64,000 bases of DNA from Pleurostoma richardsiae (lineage: Eukaryota; Ascomycota; Sordariomycetes; Calosphaeriales; Pleurostomataceae), in NCBI GenBank assembly GCA_030052745.1, contig JANBVO010000063.1, forward strand, positions 92,999 through 156,998, written 5' to 3'. Shown one piece after another: positions 18,879 to 61,349 of this stretch (positions are counted from its first letter, which is position 1; each line of letters starts with the position of its first letter). The position numbers were made by a program, and so were the translations under genes. The notes beneath the pieces are model-generated. The model searched no databases. It had not been told where the DNA came from and worked only from the letters and a program-made list of their open reading frames with translations.

Positions 18879-19599
18879 TTCTGCTGAACAAGCCCAGTTG
18901 CAAACGCCACAGTTCGGGGGTGGGTAACTATTTCATCCACGCCCGAAGATGTCGTGTCATATTCTGTTCAGCATAGATAGTTCGGGATATCAAATTGGAC
19001 CGATGAGGATTTGACGAAACGCAAGAGAGATCAATAAATGGAAGAGGCATCGGAGTCTTGACTGGGAGGCATGAAACATTGACGCTGAGTCCGAGGCGCA
19101 GCGATCACGAACCCCCCCTTTTCTATTCGACAGATTAAGCGCCCTGGATCCTTCGACCTGCCCTCGACCGGTTTTTGGCACCCAACCATAAACGGTTATC
19201 CGTCCGCCTGTTATCTATCTGGTTGCTAATGTCCCCTGAGGGTCTACTGACTCAATGCCCCCTCTTGCCACGTTGATGACAAACTGACCTACTGAGTGAA
19301 GATTAACGAGCGACAGCGAGTCTTCGAAACGAAACCCTGACCTTTAGGGAACTCCGCAATATAACGGGTCCTCTCCTACCTGGTCCTGCATCAGACCTGT
19401 TCCTCTTCCTGTTCTATCGCAGCTATGTCCAGATATGCCGGGGCAGCAAGCGGTTCCCGACCGGGAGCTGAGGTGCAGATCAGCCTGGGTCGCTATAAAG
19501 GGCCAACAGCTCGCGATGCAGGGGTTGAGGCGGCACCTTGTCTCATGCTTATCCCTTCTTCGTTGCACACGCGTCCCCGAGTGAGCGGATACGGCATCA
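18879..19599. other. intergenic, no gene recognised
   Basis: Promoter side of the membrane protein gene, followed by sequence downstream of the dynamin fragment that I cannot align to a gene. The dynamin frame stays open to 19344 but stops resembling the family near 19600. Confidence 0.4.
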
Positions 19600-19880
19600 A
19601 TGTGAGCGTCAATGCCGAGCTGACTTCGGTTGAGAGCGACCCAAACTCCTTCAGAAAAGAAGGCCCTCTCAGCCGCATCACGCTCATGGTTTGTAGCATG
19701 TCGCGTATCGCAATCCCGGTTTCTAACGATGTGCCACCCGAGACGAAACTTAACGTCCGTGTTTTGGGCAAGCTTAAGATACGACTTTTCACTCTCAAAG
19801 CCTTCGTGCAAGGTATCTGTCTTGGTAATGAGGCCAAGTGTCCGGTCTCCGTCAGGATCCATAGAATACTGCGCCAACCC
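19600..19880 (-). pseudogene. fragment of a fungal dynamin-like GTPase
   Basis: On the minus strand the frame from 19880 reads DPDGDRTLGLITKTDTL, then DVKFRLGWHIVRNRD, then ERDAAERAFF and SQLGIDA. This is the G4 region (TKxD, here TKTD rather than the usual TKPD) and the following part of the GTPase domain of fungal dynamin-family proteins, some of which are related to Mx. The P-loop and the G2 and G3 motifs, which should lie upstream, are missing. Directly upstream of 19880 the sequence turns into an AT-rich island with a stop in frame. Downstream of about 19600 the similarity is lost although the frame continues. The fragment covers about 90 of the roughly 700-900 residues of a full-length member, so it is a remnant. 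Such genes are often multi-copy and lie near HET loci. Confidence 0.8.
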
Positions 19881-20240
19881 TAATACTTATATAAAGAACT
19901 TTATCGAAAGAGACCCTGTTCTAAGGAACTACAGCGACTTAAAGTGTAACAACGCTTCCTTCCTCTTAGGAGATAGTAACGAGGGTATTATAACTATAAT
20001 GTTTTAGATTATAGATTTAGGAATAATTAATTGGTTCTAAAGTGTTTTCGCATTAATTTTACCGTTTATGTAAGAGAGTATTTAAAAATAAGAACTCGAA
20101 TAATAATACGTTAGTACGTTAAATCAAAGTTAAGAGTATATACCAAATATTAAAGCCTAGAATTAGGGCTTTTTAATCTATTGAACGGTTTAAATAGATC
20201 TGTTTATTTAGTGATGTTTTCGCTGTTTAATTGCAGGTAG
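19881..20240. repeat. AT-rich island, possibly RIP-mutated repeat
   Basis: About 360 nt that are visibly AT-rich and TpA-rich with few CpA, unlike the GC-balanced flanks. This fits repeat-induced point mutation of a former mobile element. No transposase motif is left. The dynamin fragment breaks exactly at its left edge. Confidence 0.5.
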
Positions 20241-20932
20241 TTGAATTTAGGTGTGGTTGACTTGGGCTGCAGGGGGGCCAGACTTGCGTTTATTTATTTT
20301 AACTGTCTTTTATTGAACGAGGGCGTGCGAGTATATCAACGGAGGAAGCTCAGCTCACCGAAAACACCGGGGTGTTGCTGGCCAGGCGTTGGCATCCCGC
20401 CAGTCATAAAACAACAGCTTAACGGGAAAGTCGACCTCCGCCACCTGCAAAGGGCACCGAAAGCAAAATGAAGCTCGGCGACCTGTATTGTGCCGCAGTC
20501 TGTGCACACGGACTGTGGTATAGTAGTTCTATTTGTATGACTTAGTACCCGATCATAGTCTACGGTTAAAAGTGTGCTTTCTAGCATCTCTGTTCTTGAC
20601 ACGTGGGCTTACCAGAAGCCTAAAATGCGCCATGCTCTCAGGTTTCGGGGCTCTTTGCTGTCTCCTGCTGATTGCCTCACAGCTGCTTTACCACTCCGTA
20701 TCGCGATACGAAGCTCCTACTCGACCAGGAGTGCACACTGAGCCGAATTTTGCTCTATCTAAATGGTCGAACCCAATATGGCTACCCATTGTGATCCGTC
20801 TCCCAAGTCGGAAGATTCCCCTTTCCGACGGGCGCTCGAGCGATTCAAGGATAAACATCTTAAGGACTAGAGTCCTCCAGGAGGGCATGGAGCAGCACGA
20901 GAAGCTCATTGAGGTGTTTGTATAGGGCGTAT
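20241..20932. other. intergenic, 3' flank of the HET gene
   Basis: Normal base composition returns here. The plus-strand open frame 20533-20925 shows no domain, and I do not call it. Confidence 0.4.
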
Positions 20933-23431
20933 TTAAACAATCCGCAAAAGGCTGTCCCCTTCTTGCAAATACAACCGACGTTGCGCTGAGTTCTTCGCCG
21001 TGGCGCCATCAGCGGCTGGAGCCGGCAAGCGCCAGGGCCGCACAAGGTCTCTGGCAACGTTCAGTCGCCGCATTTCATTGCAGAAGCCAATGCGTCTGTA
21101 AACGCCTTCCTCTTCCTTGGCCGGTTCCAGGAGCAGGCCGGTTCCTTGGGATATGTTGTCGAGAGTGCCCCGAAAGAGGGGTAGGAAGAACAACTGCGGG
21201 TAGCGTTCGGAGAGAGACTCAACGTCCCATTCCTCTTCCTCTTCCTCGTCTCCATCTTCATCCTCGTCGTCTTCGCTACCTCCACTTTCGGAATTATCCT
21301 CAGAGCCAATCCCTTCGTTATCATCGTCGTCATAGTCATCTTCCTTCCCTAGCTGTTCCGAACCCTTCTCTTCTTCGCCATTCTGAGGACAGCACAAGTC
21401 CACCTCCACCCCCATCAACTGGTCATCCATGCCCTCCACTTGAACCCCGATCTCGCTATAAGCAAGTGCCTGCGAGCCCTTGACAAACTTGGCGGAGTAT
21501 ACACGGGCACGGCACAGGATGTAACCGCTCTCAAGCGCGCCGAAAAGGCCCTTACCGCGGTAGATCACCCCAGTATCGACGATTTCCACCTGGTGTGCGT
21601 CCTTGGCACCTGCAGTTGTGCCATAGAAGTCCACCATCCCGTCCGCGGATGCCCAAGACCAACTCGGCGCTATATAAGCCGTCCGTTGCCGGAATTGCTC
21701 CGGTCTCTGGACCTGCGCGAGGGGGCAGCTGTGTCCATGGTCCACGATCCCCCTGCGCCAGTGCAAACTATCAAGGAGACCCTCCTTCCAGTGCCCGGCG
21801 AGATAATGGCCCCCGTAGAGACGCTGGTAGGTCCGGGCAACCCCTGATATGGCAACCAGCCGGTCCTGGCCGTTCGTGAGGTTTAGGCGACTGTAGAGCT
21901 CTACGATCTTATGCCATGTAGTCCACGGCGAGAAGCGCAGCGTCGCGTTATCGCCATTTGGGCTGCCAATGAGAGCCGAGGATTTAGCAGCAAAGTCAGG
22001 AACTAAAGCGTCTCTCAGCACTGTCGCCGTCGGCTCCGCTCTCCCGATCTGTCCCCACTCCATCTCCTTCTGGGGGAGGCCAGACGGAAACACCTCGCAC
22101 GCCCTGTGCTCGTTACATTCCCACTGAAGCTGGTCGGGGGCGAAGTGCAGAATACGCGGCGCCAGCTGGTGCTCCTGAAATATCCAGCCGCGGGAAAATA
22201 TCTCTTGCTTGTCCACCCGCCGTGTCCAGAAGTCTTGGTCGAAGAGCACGAAGTCGCTGACCGATAGCGATCCGGGAGCATCGACGATTTTCCCATCCTG
22301 AAGTATTGAAAAGGCGGGCCTGATCCAGGCGGCCGTTATCCTCTCATGACTACTTGGCAAGCGACGCCGTGGATGAAAGAGGCCTCCCTCTTTGCATTCA
22401 TCGCCGGTTGCACAGATATTGCAAAACGACCGGGAGTACACGTCCGCCATGGTGACTGACTCGGCCAGCCAGTCTTCCTCGCTGTCCTGAATAATGCACA
22501 GAGAGTCAATCCAGATATATCGGATTCCAAGCCGTCGAGTGCACATGATGGCGTCTTGGAATACCCTGGATAGCGCTCCAAGATCAATACTGCGCTTCAG
22601 ACGCGCGAGATTCTCTTGCTTCAGTTGAAGGTATCTGGAGGCATCTGCCGACCATCGGTGGCTTAACGTCATGTATCGGCCCGAAGGAAGGATCTCAGCC
22701 GTCTCGATGACGCGAAGGGTGTTATCGGCGCCGTCGCCGACATAAATAAGCCTTGTCGGATAAGCCGCGCTGGCGTCGTCTGCATCTTCTCTTGGTCTAC
22801 CGCATCGAACGTGGTGTTCAGAGCAGTTCTTGAGCCAGGATCGTACATGCTTCACAGCTTGGGCAGAGAGCCATGGCTCCTTACAGTTGTAGAGTAGAGA
22901 AAGTGCATGAGCTTCATTCCATTCCGAACTAGCTGTTAGATGGAAGCTCGTTAGTTAATATTGCGTCCCGTATGTTCACTAGTACTGAAAGAGGGAGGGA
23001 GTTCGATGAAGTCGCTTACCAATTATGGGTTGCAGTGGCCACTCACCCCCTTGTGTGCAACTCTCCTTACCTCTGTCCGTCCGGACGACGCAGCTCCACT
23101 GCATAGAGACGCTATATAACGACTTCTCGATACTTCTTGAAGCCGCTTCCAGTTTTGATTTAGGAGATGTCATCCTGCTCTCGCCATTGTAGAAATGAAA
23201 CTGAAACTCTGCGGGTCCGACCGAAGTAACCGAGTCTATACTATGTATTCGATTGTGGAATGTAAAGTTATCGCTCACACTTGTGCAGATAAAACAGCCC
23301 AGGGCGACCGACTTCTTCAGGGTCTCGAGTGAATATGGTCTTTTTATCGTCGTGTTAGCCTCATCTTCCGGTAATATACCGATCATAGGTGGTTGTCCGC
23401 GGAAGACGCTCTGGCAAGTCTCACAGAGCAT
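20933..23431 (-). CDS. HET-domain protein with acidic insert
   Basis: Two exons: 23020-23431 and 20933-22932, joined across an 87-nt intron (donor GTAAGC, acceptor TAACAG). Together they give 803 residues. The start ATG at 23431 gives MLCETCQSVFRGQP, the usual Cys-containing opening of this HET subfamily (CxxC...), followed by GCFICTSV. The HET domain lies in exon 2: YMTLSHRWSADASRYLQL, VFQDAIMCTRRLGIRYIWIDSLCIIQDS, VYSRSFCNICATG, and further on SRGWIFQEHQLAPRILHF. The PSWSWASADG block closes the conserved part. Residues encoded by about 21220-21350 form a long run of Asp and Glu, unusual for the family. A role in vegetative incompatibility is inferred from the domain only. The first HET gene of this window (1-1425) is a distant paralogue. 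Confidence 0.9.
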
Positions 23432-59807: not shown

Positions 59808-61349
59808 ATGGCAGCTCTTCCAGCTTTACCGGCCGCACTCATGTTCATGATCGCTGAGGATATCGAAGATGACGAAGACTTGGCTGCTCTGGCGAGAACA
59901 GGCGGGCCACTGAATGGTGCCGCAGAAGACGTTCTATACCGGAGAGATGCCACGTCGGCACACCCCTTCGCGCTATTCTGGGCTGCTGAGAATAATCGAC
60001 TTCGAACTCTACAGAAGGCGATCCAAGCAGGGGCTGATGTCAACATCATTTGGAATTTCAACCCGCCACCACCAAACGAGAATGTACTCGCGGCTCGTCG
60101 AGTTTTCGACTGGCATGACTTCACGCCGCTCGAGCTTGCGGTATACTAGGACCACCGCGAAATTCTGGATGCGCTGCATGCAGCAGGCGCGGCTCTCACC
60201 GCGCAGGGCAGACTCTGCCAATGCAGAGAGCAGATGGGAAGCATGAATCCAGATGAACTTGACGGAATGTATCCCATGACAGGTCCGCTACACCTGGCCA
60301 TCTGCCGAGGACATACCGCAGTAGCCATGTCGCTCCTTCAGTGGGGTGCCGCCACCCAGTTTCTCCCTCGCCAGGCCACCGCCCTTCATGACGCAGCCTT
60401 ATTGGGAAATATTCAACTAGTCAAGTTCATAGTTGGGACAGGGTACCAGCAAAACGTCGATCCCCCTGATGCAATCAACATGACTCCTTTCACCTATGCA
60501 ATGCGCCGGAGCCAGTGGGGAGTTGTCAACTACCTCCTAAAGCAAGGCGCTAACATCAACGTCAACTTTTTGCATCCCACCTCGAATGCGAATACTGCCC
60601 TGAGCTGTTGCTGCTACGCAGAGCGCTACGCCGATGCTCTCATCCTTCTCGACCTCGGTGCTGTCATCAACGCCAGCAATGGACCAACCGCCCCTCTGCT
60701 GGGGGCATGTCGGGAACCTTGGAGGCCGGGCAAATCGGACCGGGGCTGGACTGCGGTAAATCGCACACGCAAGAAGCTCCTGCAGAGACTATTTGCTGCT
60801 GGAGCCAACATGGAGGCCAGGGACATAAACAACGCCACCCCACTTATTTGTGCTGCTCAGTTTGGGGATCTCACTGCGTCGACACTCCTCATTTCAAGGG
60901 GAGCAAACCGCAATGCAGTGGATAACTACGGCCTCACGGCTTTTCAAGTCACATGCCTTCGCCAAGCGGACCCAGGCGCTGCTGAGCAGCAATTTCTCAT
61001 TGCGGATCTGCATCTGAGGCATGGCGCGGACCCTAACCGCACAATCCCGCACATGAATAATAGGCTCAACGTTTCCACCCTATACGGCGCCTTCGTCCTC
61101 GAGCGGTTTCTTTTCTGCGACTACTTGCTGAGGCACAACGCTCACTTCCAACGAGGGGAACAGAGGAATCTACTTTTACATTGCATTTTTCACCGTCTCC
61201 CAGAGTCTATGCTCTACCTGCTGAGACTTCACGACCGCTTCGGGTTAGCGCAGGTGAGGCCCTCGAATCTGGAGAAGCAAGGATGTCGGGAGCTGGCCTG
61301 GAACACGGACAATATAGATTTAATGAGTGCGGTAGACACGCTGCCTTGA
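59808..61349 (+). pseudogene. F-box-like/ankyrin-repeat protein interrupted by one in-frame TAG
   Basis: One frame of 514 codons runs from the ATG at 59808 to the TGA at 61347-61349, broken only by a TAG at 60147-60149 (codon 114). The start gives MAALPALPAALMFMIAEDIE, then LAALARTGGPLNGAAEDVLY, the F-box-like opening of a common fungal ankyrin subfamily, followed by ALFWAAENNRLRTLQKAIQ, AGADVN. Ankyrin repeats continue across and after the TAG: FTPLELAVY, stop, DHREILDALHAAGA; GPLHLAICRGHTAVAMSLLQ; TALHDAALLGNIQLVKFIV; TPLICAAQFGDLTASTLLI. No frameshift or other damage is present. Tryptophan would fit well at the stop (AVYWDHREI, like the YWGH of many ankyrin repeats). The TAG lies in the loop of a strong hairpin. 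I type it as a pseudogene only because of the stop; mRNA recoding is a serious alternative. Confidence 0.78.
60136..60160 (+). promoter_or_regulatory. hairpin presenting the in-frame TAG in its loop
   Basis: The bases TTGCGGT (60136-60142) and ACCGCGA (60154-60160) pair over 7 bp with one G-U wobble, leaving an 11-nt loop (60143-60153) that contains TAG at 60147-60149. Fungal A-to-I mRNA editing prefers UAG in hairpin loops, so this is a candidate editing substrate. The hairpin is seen; its use is inference. Confidence 0.6.

What the first reader, a model, noticed from the sequence alone, without database searches (positions are those of the whole stretch)
59808..61349. In-frame TAG inside a hairpin loop in an otherwise intact ankyrin gene: candidate A-to-I edited codon
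The 514-codon frame has a single defect, a TAG at codon 114, and the ankyrin pattern continues on both sides (TPLELAVY, stop, DHREILDAL). The TAG sits in an 11-nt loop closed by a 7-bp stem. Sordariomycetes are known to edit A to I in mRNA during sexual development, with preference for UAG in hairpin loops, turning UAG into UGG (Trp); the Fusarium PUK1 gene is the known case. Trp would suit this ankyrin position. The gene looks dead to standard annotation but may be live only in fruiting bodies.
Basis: partly seen in the sequence, partly recalled or inferred. Interest (0 to 1): 0.9.

Follow-up and report, generated by a model that had tools for sequence, protein, structure and literature searches.

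The report
Fungal ankyrin gene with edit-prone stop
A fungal gene is cut in two by a single stop codon that resembles the stops some fungi erase in their RNA during sexual reproduction, but without RNA data it could about as well be a freshly broken gene.

Summary
In detail: 59808-61349 is one frame with a single internal TAG (60147-60149) in an 11-nt loop on a 7-bp stem, and an ankyrin repeat runs across it. The genome is Pleurostoma richardsiae (Sordariomycetes; by contig-length match) and is very probably editing-competent: its PUK1-type kinase carries TAG TGG at a Trp-Trp site, the form published as edited in Neurospora NCU03242. It also has three DUF726 (Ame1-family) loci and 12 OTT_1508-deaminase matches. 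The window site fits 5 of 6 published base preferences; that plus a stem of 7 bp or more occurs at 7 of 1214 window TAGs. There is no RIP signature and no convincing intron. Against editing: Trp does not especially suit the column (11 of 419 database repeats, 0 of 80 others here, 0 of 119 alignments; Phe in the best paralogue), no orthologue covers the site, no RNA was available, and plain TAG-broken genes exist in this genome. Editing (0.42) and a young nonsense mutation (0.40) are about equally likely; only RNA can decide. If real, it is one more member of a known class (about 70 genes in Fusarium graminearum).

The parts
59808..61349 (+). interrupted ankyrin-repeat gene, 514 codons including the final TGA
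   Evidence: one search finds distant paralogues in the genome, best on C56 (34% over residues 98-367, plus 35% over 3-87)
59808..60149 (+). 5' piece, 113 codons and the TAG; F-box-like by eye, followed by a first ankyrin half-repeat
   Evidence: no Pfam match on its own; F-box is my reading by eye, not a tool result
60147..60149 (+). internal TAG; candidate edited A at 60148
   Evidence: neighbours -2 to +4 = C U A G G A C, 5 of 6 preferred
60136..60160 (+). predicted hairpin: 7-bp stem, 11-nt loop with the A in the middle
60150..61349 (+). 3' piece, 399 codons of ankyrin repeats and the final stop
   Evidence: a metagenomic protein (P0002) is identical to residues 252-513

Best explanation
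A lineage-specific ankyrin-repeat gene of Pleurostoma richardsiae whose internal TAG is a candidate premature-stop-correction site. In ordinary mycelium only a 113-residue fragment would be made. Where A-to-I mRNA editing is active (the Tad2-Tad3-Ame1 system of sexual tissue, or less likely an OTT_1508 deaminase) the A at 60148 in the hairpin loop would be deaminated, the codon read as Trp, and the 513-residue protein made. Shown: the frame, the single stop, the predicted hairpin, the base context, the Sordariomycete host, a PUK1-type TAG in the same genome. Inferred: editing competence, transcription, editing of this A, any function of the full protein.
For: Single defect, with an ankyrin repeat spanning it. 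Context 5 of 6 preferred plus a stem of at least 7 bp at 7 of 1214 window TAGs (preferences from PMC9600606). Species is P. richardsiae, Sordariomycetes. Its PUK1-type kinase has GAC TAG TGG at the site published as edited in PUK1 and NCU03242; where the motif was found in relatives it is Trp-Trp in 49 of 49, and 18 of 120 listed relatives end exactly at one of the two codons. Three DUF726 loci, one with Met-Val near the published position. No RIP signature and no convincing intron.
Against: Trp is rare at this column and the best paralogue has Phe. No orthologue covers the site, so conservation of the stop is untested. The local fold is not more stable than shuffles. Ordinary genes broken by TAG exist in this genome, and the codon statistics of the 5' piece are not distinctive. 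No RNA data. The sexual state of this species is, as far as I recall, not known in culture.
Confidence: 0.42

Rival explanations
1. A recent ordinary nonsense mutation in a fast-evolving, dispensable ankyrin gene; hairpin and context are coincidence, and the intact remainder means only that the mutation is young.
For: Residues one base from TAG other than Trp make up 151 of 419 at this column, Trp 11. No orthologue found. The family turns over: only distant paralogues, and other TAG-broken genes such as the HET gene on C50, stopped at a position that is Gln in the HET consensus as I recall it, and broken again downstream. 384 of 1214 TAGs lie in a hairpin loop by chance.
Against: No second break in 399 following codons; the combined context is uncommon (7 of 1214).
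Confidence: 0.4
2. A sequencing or assembly error: the genome has a sense codon here.
For: The only near relative, P0002, starts at residue 232, so the base has one source.
Against: No other defect in the frame.
Confidence: 0.07
3. The stop lies in an unrecognised intron or an optional exonic intron that is spliced out.
For: 63 of 173 donor-acceptor pairs keep the frame; the best donor is GTATAC at 60141. Its 66-nt option (60141-60206) has a CTCAC that could serve as branch site under a looser pattern. Automated annotation often puts a false intron at such stops (PMC4817773, PMC11169179, passages).
Against: The donor lacks the G at +5 that I saw by eye in six introns of other loci. The stricter branch pattern was absent from all nine GTATAC options listed. 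The intron would remove half of a repeat that the Pfam score and the C56 paralogue keep.
Confidence: 0.06
4. Two separate short proteins: the 5' fragment and a 3' protein begun at a downstream ATG.
For: 399 open codons follow the stop, with several ATGs.
Against: A repeat is split in the middle.
Confidence: 0.05

Closest known systems
PUK1-like premature-stop-correction (PSC) genes of Fusarium graminearum and Neurospora crassa (PMC4817773, PMC11156358)
   Same: One in-frame UAG, U at -1, purines at +1 and +3, hairpin loop, otherwise intact frame, Sordariomycete host that itself carries a PUK1-type TAG
   Different: No RNA evidence, no orthologue with the same stop, and Trp is not the expected residue at the column; in PUK1 it is
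CHE1 of Fusarium and OLD-ZAO of Neurospora (PMC11169179, PMC12754623)
   Same: UAG in a hairpin loop with U at -1, editing possible outside the sexual cycle; the genome has 12 OTT_1508-domain matches
   Different: The known targets are zinc-finger genes beside the deaminase (ZAO); here an ankyrin gene, and the one OTT_1508 match on the contig lies about 147 kb away
RIP-broken genes
   Same: RIP makes TAG out of Trp and Gln codons; an ankyrin array on C95 shows it
   Different: The window gene has indices opposite to RIP and no close copy

Membership tests
Fungal PSC A-to-I editing sites | In-frame UAG in an otherwise intact coding frame | tested here: met
Fungal PSC A-to-I editing sites | Base preferences at -2 to +4 (U at -1, A/G at +1 and +3) | tested here: met
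   5 of 6 positions; only C at +4 disfavoured
Fungal PSC A-to-I editing sites | A in a hairpin loop (62% of edited sites in F. graminearum, PMC9600606) | tested here: met
   weakens in longer contexts
Fungal PSC A-to-I editing sites | Host with the editing machinery | tested here: inconclusive
   Sordariomycete, PUK1-type TAG, three DUF726 loci; Met-Val signature off by one in spacing; Tad2 and Tad3 not searched; no activity data
Fungal PSC A-to-I editing sites | Trp expected at the codon from relatives | tested here: not met
   11 of 419, 0 of 80, 0 of 119; Phe in the best paralogue. Not strictly required of every PSC site, but it holds for PUK1
Fungal PSC A-to-I editing sites | A-to-G difference between DNA and RNA | not testable with these tools
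   no RNA data
OLD-ZAO module | Target gene next to an OTT_1508 deaminase gene | tested here: not met
   12 matches in the genome, the one on this contig about 147 kb away
Ankyrin-repeat protein | Ankyrin repeats | tested here: met
   five Pfam ankyrin models above cut-off
F-box/ankyrin protein | N-terminal F-box | tested here: inconclusive
   looks F-box-like by eye; no Pfam match at E <= 0.001

The most novel reading that the evidence does not exclude
The gene is a stop-gated member of the ankyrin recognition repertoire that is switched on by editing outside the sexual cycle, for example by one of the many OTT_1508 deaminases of this species when a virus is present. That would extend the OLD-ZAO logic from a neighbouring transcription factor to distant ankyrin genes.
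Probability: 0.06. Interest if true: 0.75.

Novelty: new member of a known kind. Interest (0 to 1): 0.4.

Why it matters
If edited, it adds a lineage-specific ankyrin gene, invisible to ordinary annotation, to the genes made only when RNA is edited, in a genus for which one search of the open library found no editing report. A by-product is a ready positive control, the PUK1-type TAG of the same genome, and other candidate stops, one of them (C84) at a column where Trp is the commonest residue.

Tried and rejected
RIP as the cause of the window TAG: rejected; the gene's indices run against RIP and there is no close copy. Intron: unlikely. An excess of TAG over TAA and TGA inside domains as proof of editing: dropped. 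Rows with stops are 6 of 104 HET matches, 6 of those listed out of 168 ankyrin matches, and many kinase matches with all three stops. The 12 such loci that I fetched (5, 7) were read by eye only: they mix introns ending in TAG (C67 and several kinases), broken genes (C50, C61), and unresolved single TAGs (C2, C74, C60). C95 is RIP. Orthologues: two protein searches, full length and residues 1-150 (each scored only the 8000 candidates sharing most words), gave one near relative that does not cover the stop. Codon statistics: the true frame scored highest of the six for the 3' piece but not for the 5' piece (0.063 against 0.081 in one reverse frame). A PDB search with a 21-residue piece gave nothing. 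No structure was predicted.

Papers: PMC11156358 parts 1-2 of 3; PMC12754623 part 1 of 3; PMC11087585, PMC4817773 and PMC9600606 passages; PMC11169179 abstract and passages; all others search listings only.

Full report
What is there. The frame 59808-61349 is open except for one TAG at 60147-60149. Ankyrin repeats lie on the 3' side and one repeat spans the stop: Pfam Ank rises from 66.1 bits for the 3' piece to 82.5 with the stop read as X, while the 5' piece alone has no match. Of three places in the window where a stop separates at least 110 from at least 390 open codons, this is the only TAG; the other two are TAA, one of which splits a DUF6606 domain and was not analysed further.

How unusual is it? 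The local fold is no more stable than shuffled sequence (z = -0.10, 80 of 200 shuffles as good). Of 1214 TAGs on both strands of the window, 384 lie in a hairpin loop, 24 on a stem of at least 7 bp, and 19 also with a loop of at most 11 nt. By the published preferences at -2 to +4 (PMC9600606, passages), 239 of 1214 reach 5 of 6; 80 of these are in a hairpin loop and 7 of these on a stem of at least 7 bp, the window site being one of the 7. In F. graminearum 62% of edited sites lie in predicted hairpin loops (same paper). This is a real but modest peculiarity, picked after the fact. The PUK1-type site of this genome also reaches 5 of 6 but sits only in a 4-nt loop closed by one isolated pair; the C84 site reaches 4 of 6 and is not in a loop. 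The hairpin alone is therefore no sure mark.

Which organism, and can it edit? A protein search with the upstream part of a kinase gene on contig C1 returned a Pleurostoma richardsiae protein from a contig of 2,408,833 bases, exactly the length of C1. Pleurostoma belongs to Calosphaeriales, Sordariomycetes. The kinase gene reads YDGRCD, TAG, TGG, then SIGVILYE. PMC4817773 (passages) reports that in PUK1 two tandem UAG in the kinase domain become UGG UGG, and that N. crassa NCU03242 has UAG UGG at the same place, edited in perithecia. In the 120 relatives listed (of 1749 found), a motif open to any two residues matched 49, all Trp-Trp. A second sorting gave 54 with Trp-Trp, 13 ending exactly before the first of these codons, 5 exactly before the second, 22 whose sequence skips them, and 26 without the region. 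Among the last is the annotated P. richardsiae protein, whose gene model jumps over the stop. I take this gene as the PUK1 orthologue; that rests on the site and on its being an AGC/NDR kinase, not on a comparison with the Fusarium PUK1 sequence, which I did not have. The genome also has three loci of DUF726, the family of the editing activator Ame1 (PMC11087585, passages). One has Met-Val 88 residues before a candidate catalytic Asp, where the published numbering (MV500-501, D589) implies 89, so it is suggestive only. There are 12 matches to OTT_1508 deaminases, the family of the OLD editors of Neurospora (PMC12754623, part 1). Editing competence is very likely, but inferred; Tad2 and Tad3 were not searched.

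Does the codon look like a Trp codon? Not particularly. Among 419 repeats found by a motif in 120 database relatives the column is Asn 60, Glu 58, Ala 56, Ser 34 and Trp 11; among 80 other repeats in fetched loci of this genome Trp is 0. In 119 alignments of relatives across the site (two with a gap at the column) Trp is 0. The best paralogue, on C56, has Phe, codon TTC. Residues other than Trp that are one base from TAG make up 151 of 419. Trp would probably be tolerated, but nothing says that it was there before.

Other causes. RIP: the gene's indices (TA/AT 0.56; (CA+TG)/(AC+GT) 1.53; window means 0.71 and 1.20) are the opposite of RIP, and there is no close copy. Intron: 63 of 173 combinations keep the frame; the best donor, GTATAC, lacks the G at +5 that I saw by eye in six introns elsewhere, and the stricter branch pattern is absent from the nine GTATAC options listed, though a looser CTCAC lies in the 66-nt option. 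Error: cannot be excluded, because the only near relative, a 282-residue metagenomic protein, begins at residue 232; it differs at 4 positions, all in its first 20 residues, and is identical over the last 262.

Weighing. The species, the neighbours of the A, the hairpin and the otherwise intact frame favour editing. The column, the lack of orthologues, and ordinary TAG-broken genes in the same genome favour a plain mutation; an example is a HET gene on C50, stopped at a position that is Gln in the HET consensus as I recall it and broken again downstream. I put editing at 0.42 and a young nonsense mutation at 0.40; these are judgements, not computed odds. The finding is a fair candidate for a known class (PUK1 and another 70 genes in F. 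graminearum by PMC11156358; 69 by PMC4817773), not a new kind of system.

A side result. On C95 an ankyrin array has been hit by RIP: TA/AT 1.30 and (CA+TG)/(AC+GT) 0.49 in the array, against 0.66 and 1.21 upstream. Several repeats have TAG exactly where sister repeats have the Trp of GWTPL. RIP on the strand opposite TGG yields TAG, the one stop that A-to-I editing reads back as Trp. Whether the two processes meet in living genes is worth asking; in one search I saw only the listing, so I cannot say whether it is in print.

Noticed in passing
L093 (G000:C1:1791200-1793600), minus strand; stop also in L092: PUK1-type AGC/NDR kinase with TAG TGG at a Trp-Trp site; the public P. richardsiae gene model skips this stretch. 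A natural positive control for editing in this species.
   Followed up: yes
L012 and L021 (G000:C84, about 63400-67060), minus strand: Long ankyrin gene (1524-aa frame) with one TAG (SALH*AALHG) at a column where Trp is the commonest residue (109 of 593 database motif matches, 22 of 146 here). But a 90-nt in-frame intron GTTAGT...TAG would also remove it.
   Followed up: partly
L025 (G000:C95, about 19560-22760), minus strand: RIP-hit ankyrin array: TAGs stand where sister repeats have the Trp of GWTPL. RIP makes the very stop that A-to-I editing could read back as Trp.
   Followed up: partly
L091 (G000:C60:327400-328050): Kinase-like frame with one TAG (RSPES*ARARQNTPSDIFSF), 5 of 6 preferred neighbours; Trp at this place in relatives is recalled, not tested.
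   Followed up: no
G000:C97:5058-5258 and 11 further places: 12 matches to OTT_1508 deaminases in one genome, one on the window's own contig; whether zinc-finger genes with internal TAG lie beside them was not checked.
   Followed up: no
L015, L016, L017 (G000:C82, C2, C78): Three DUF726 (Ame1-family) loci; the C2 copy has Met-Val near the published Sordariomycete signature.
   Followed up: partly
L082 (G000:C50:22000-22900) and L084 (G000:C61:396500-397400), minus strand: HET-domain frames broken by TAG and by further stops: plain broken genes in the same genome.
   Followed up: partly
L081 (G000:C2:437300-438500) and L083 (G000:C74:156500-157500), minus strand: HET-domain frames with one TAG inside the domain match; intron, mutation or editing not resolved.
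   Followed up: no
window 43326, minus strand: A TAA separates two parts of a DUF6606 domain in a giant DUF3638/DUF6606 gene; an intron is possible but was not examined.
   Followed up: no
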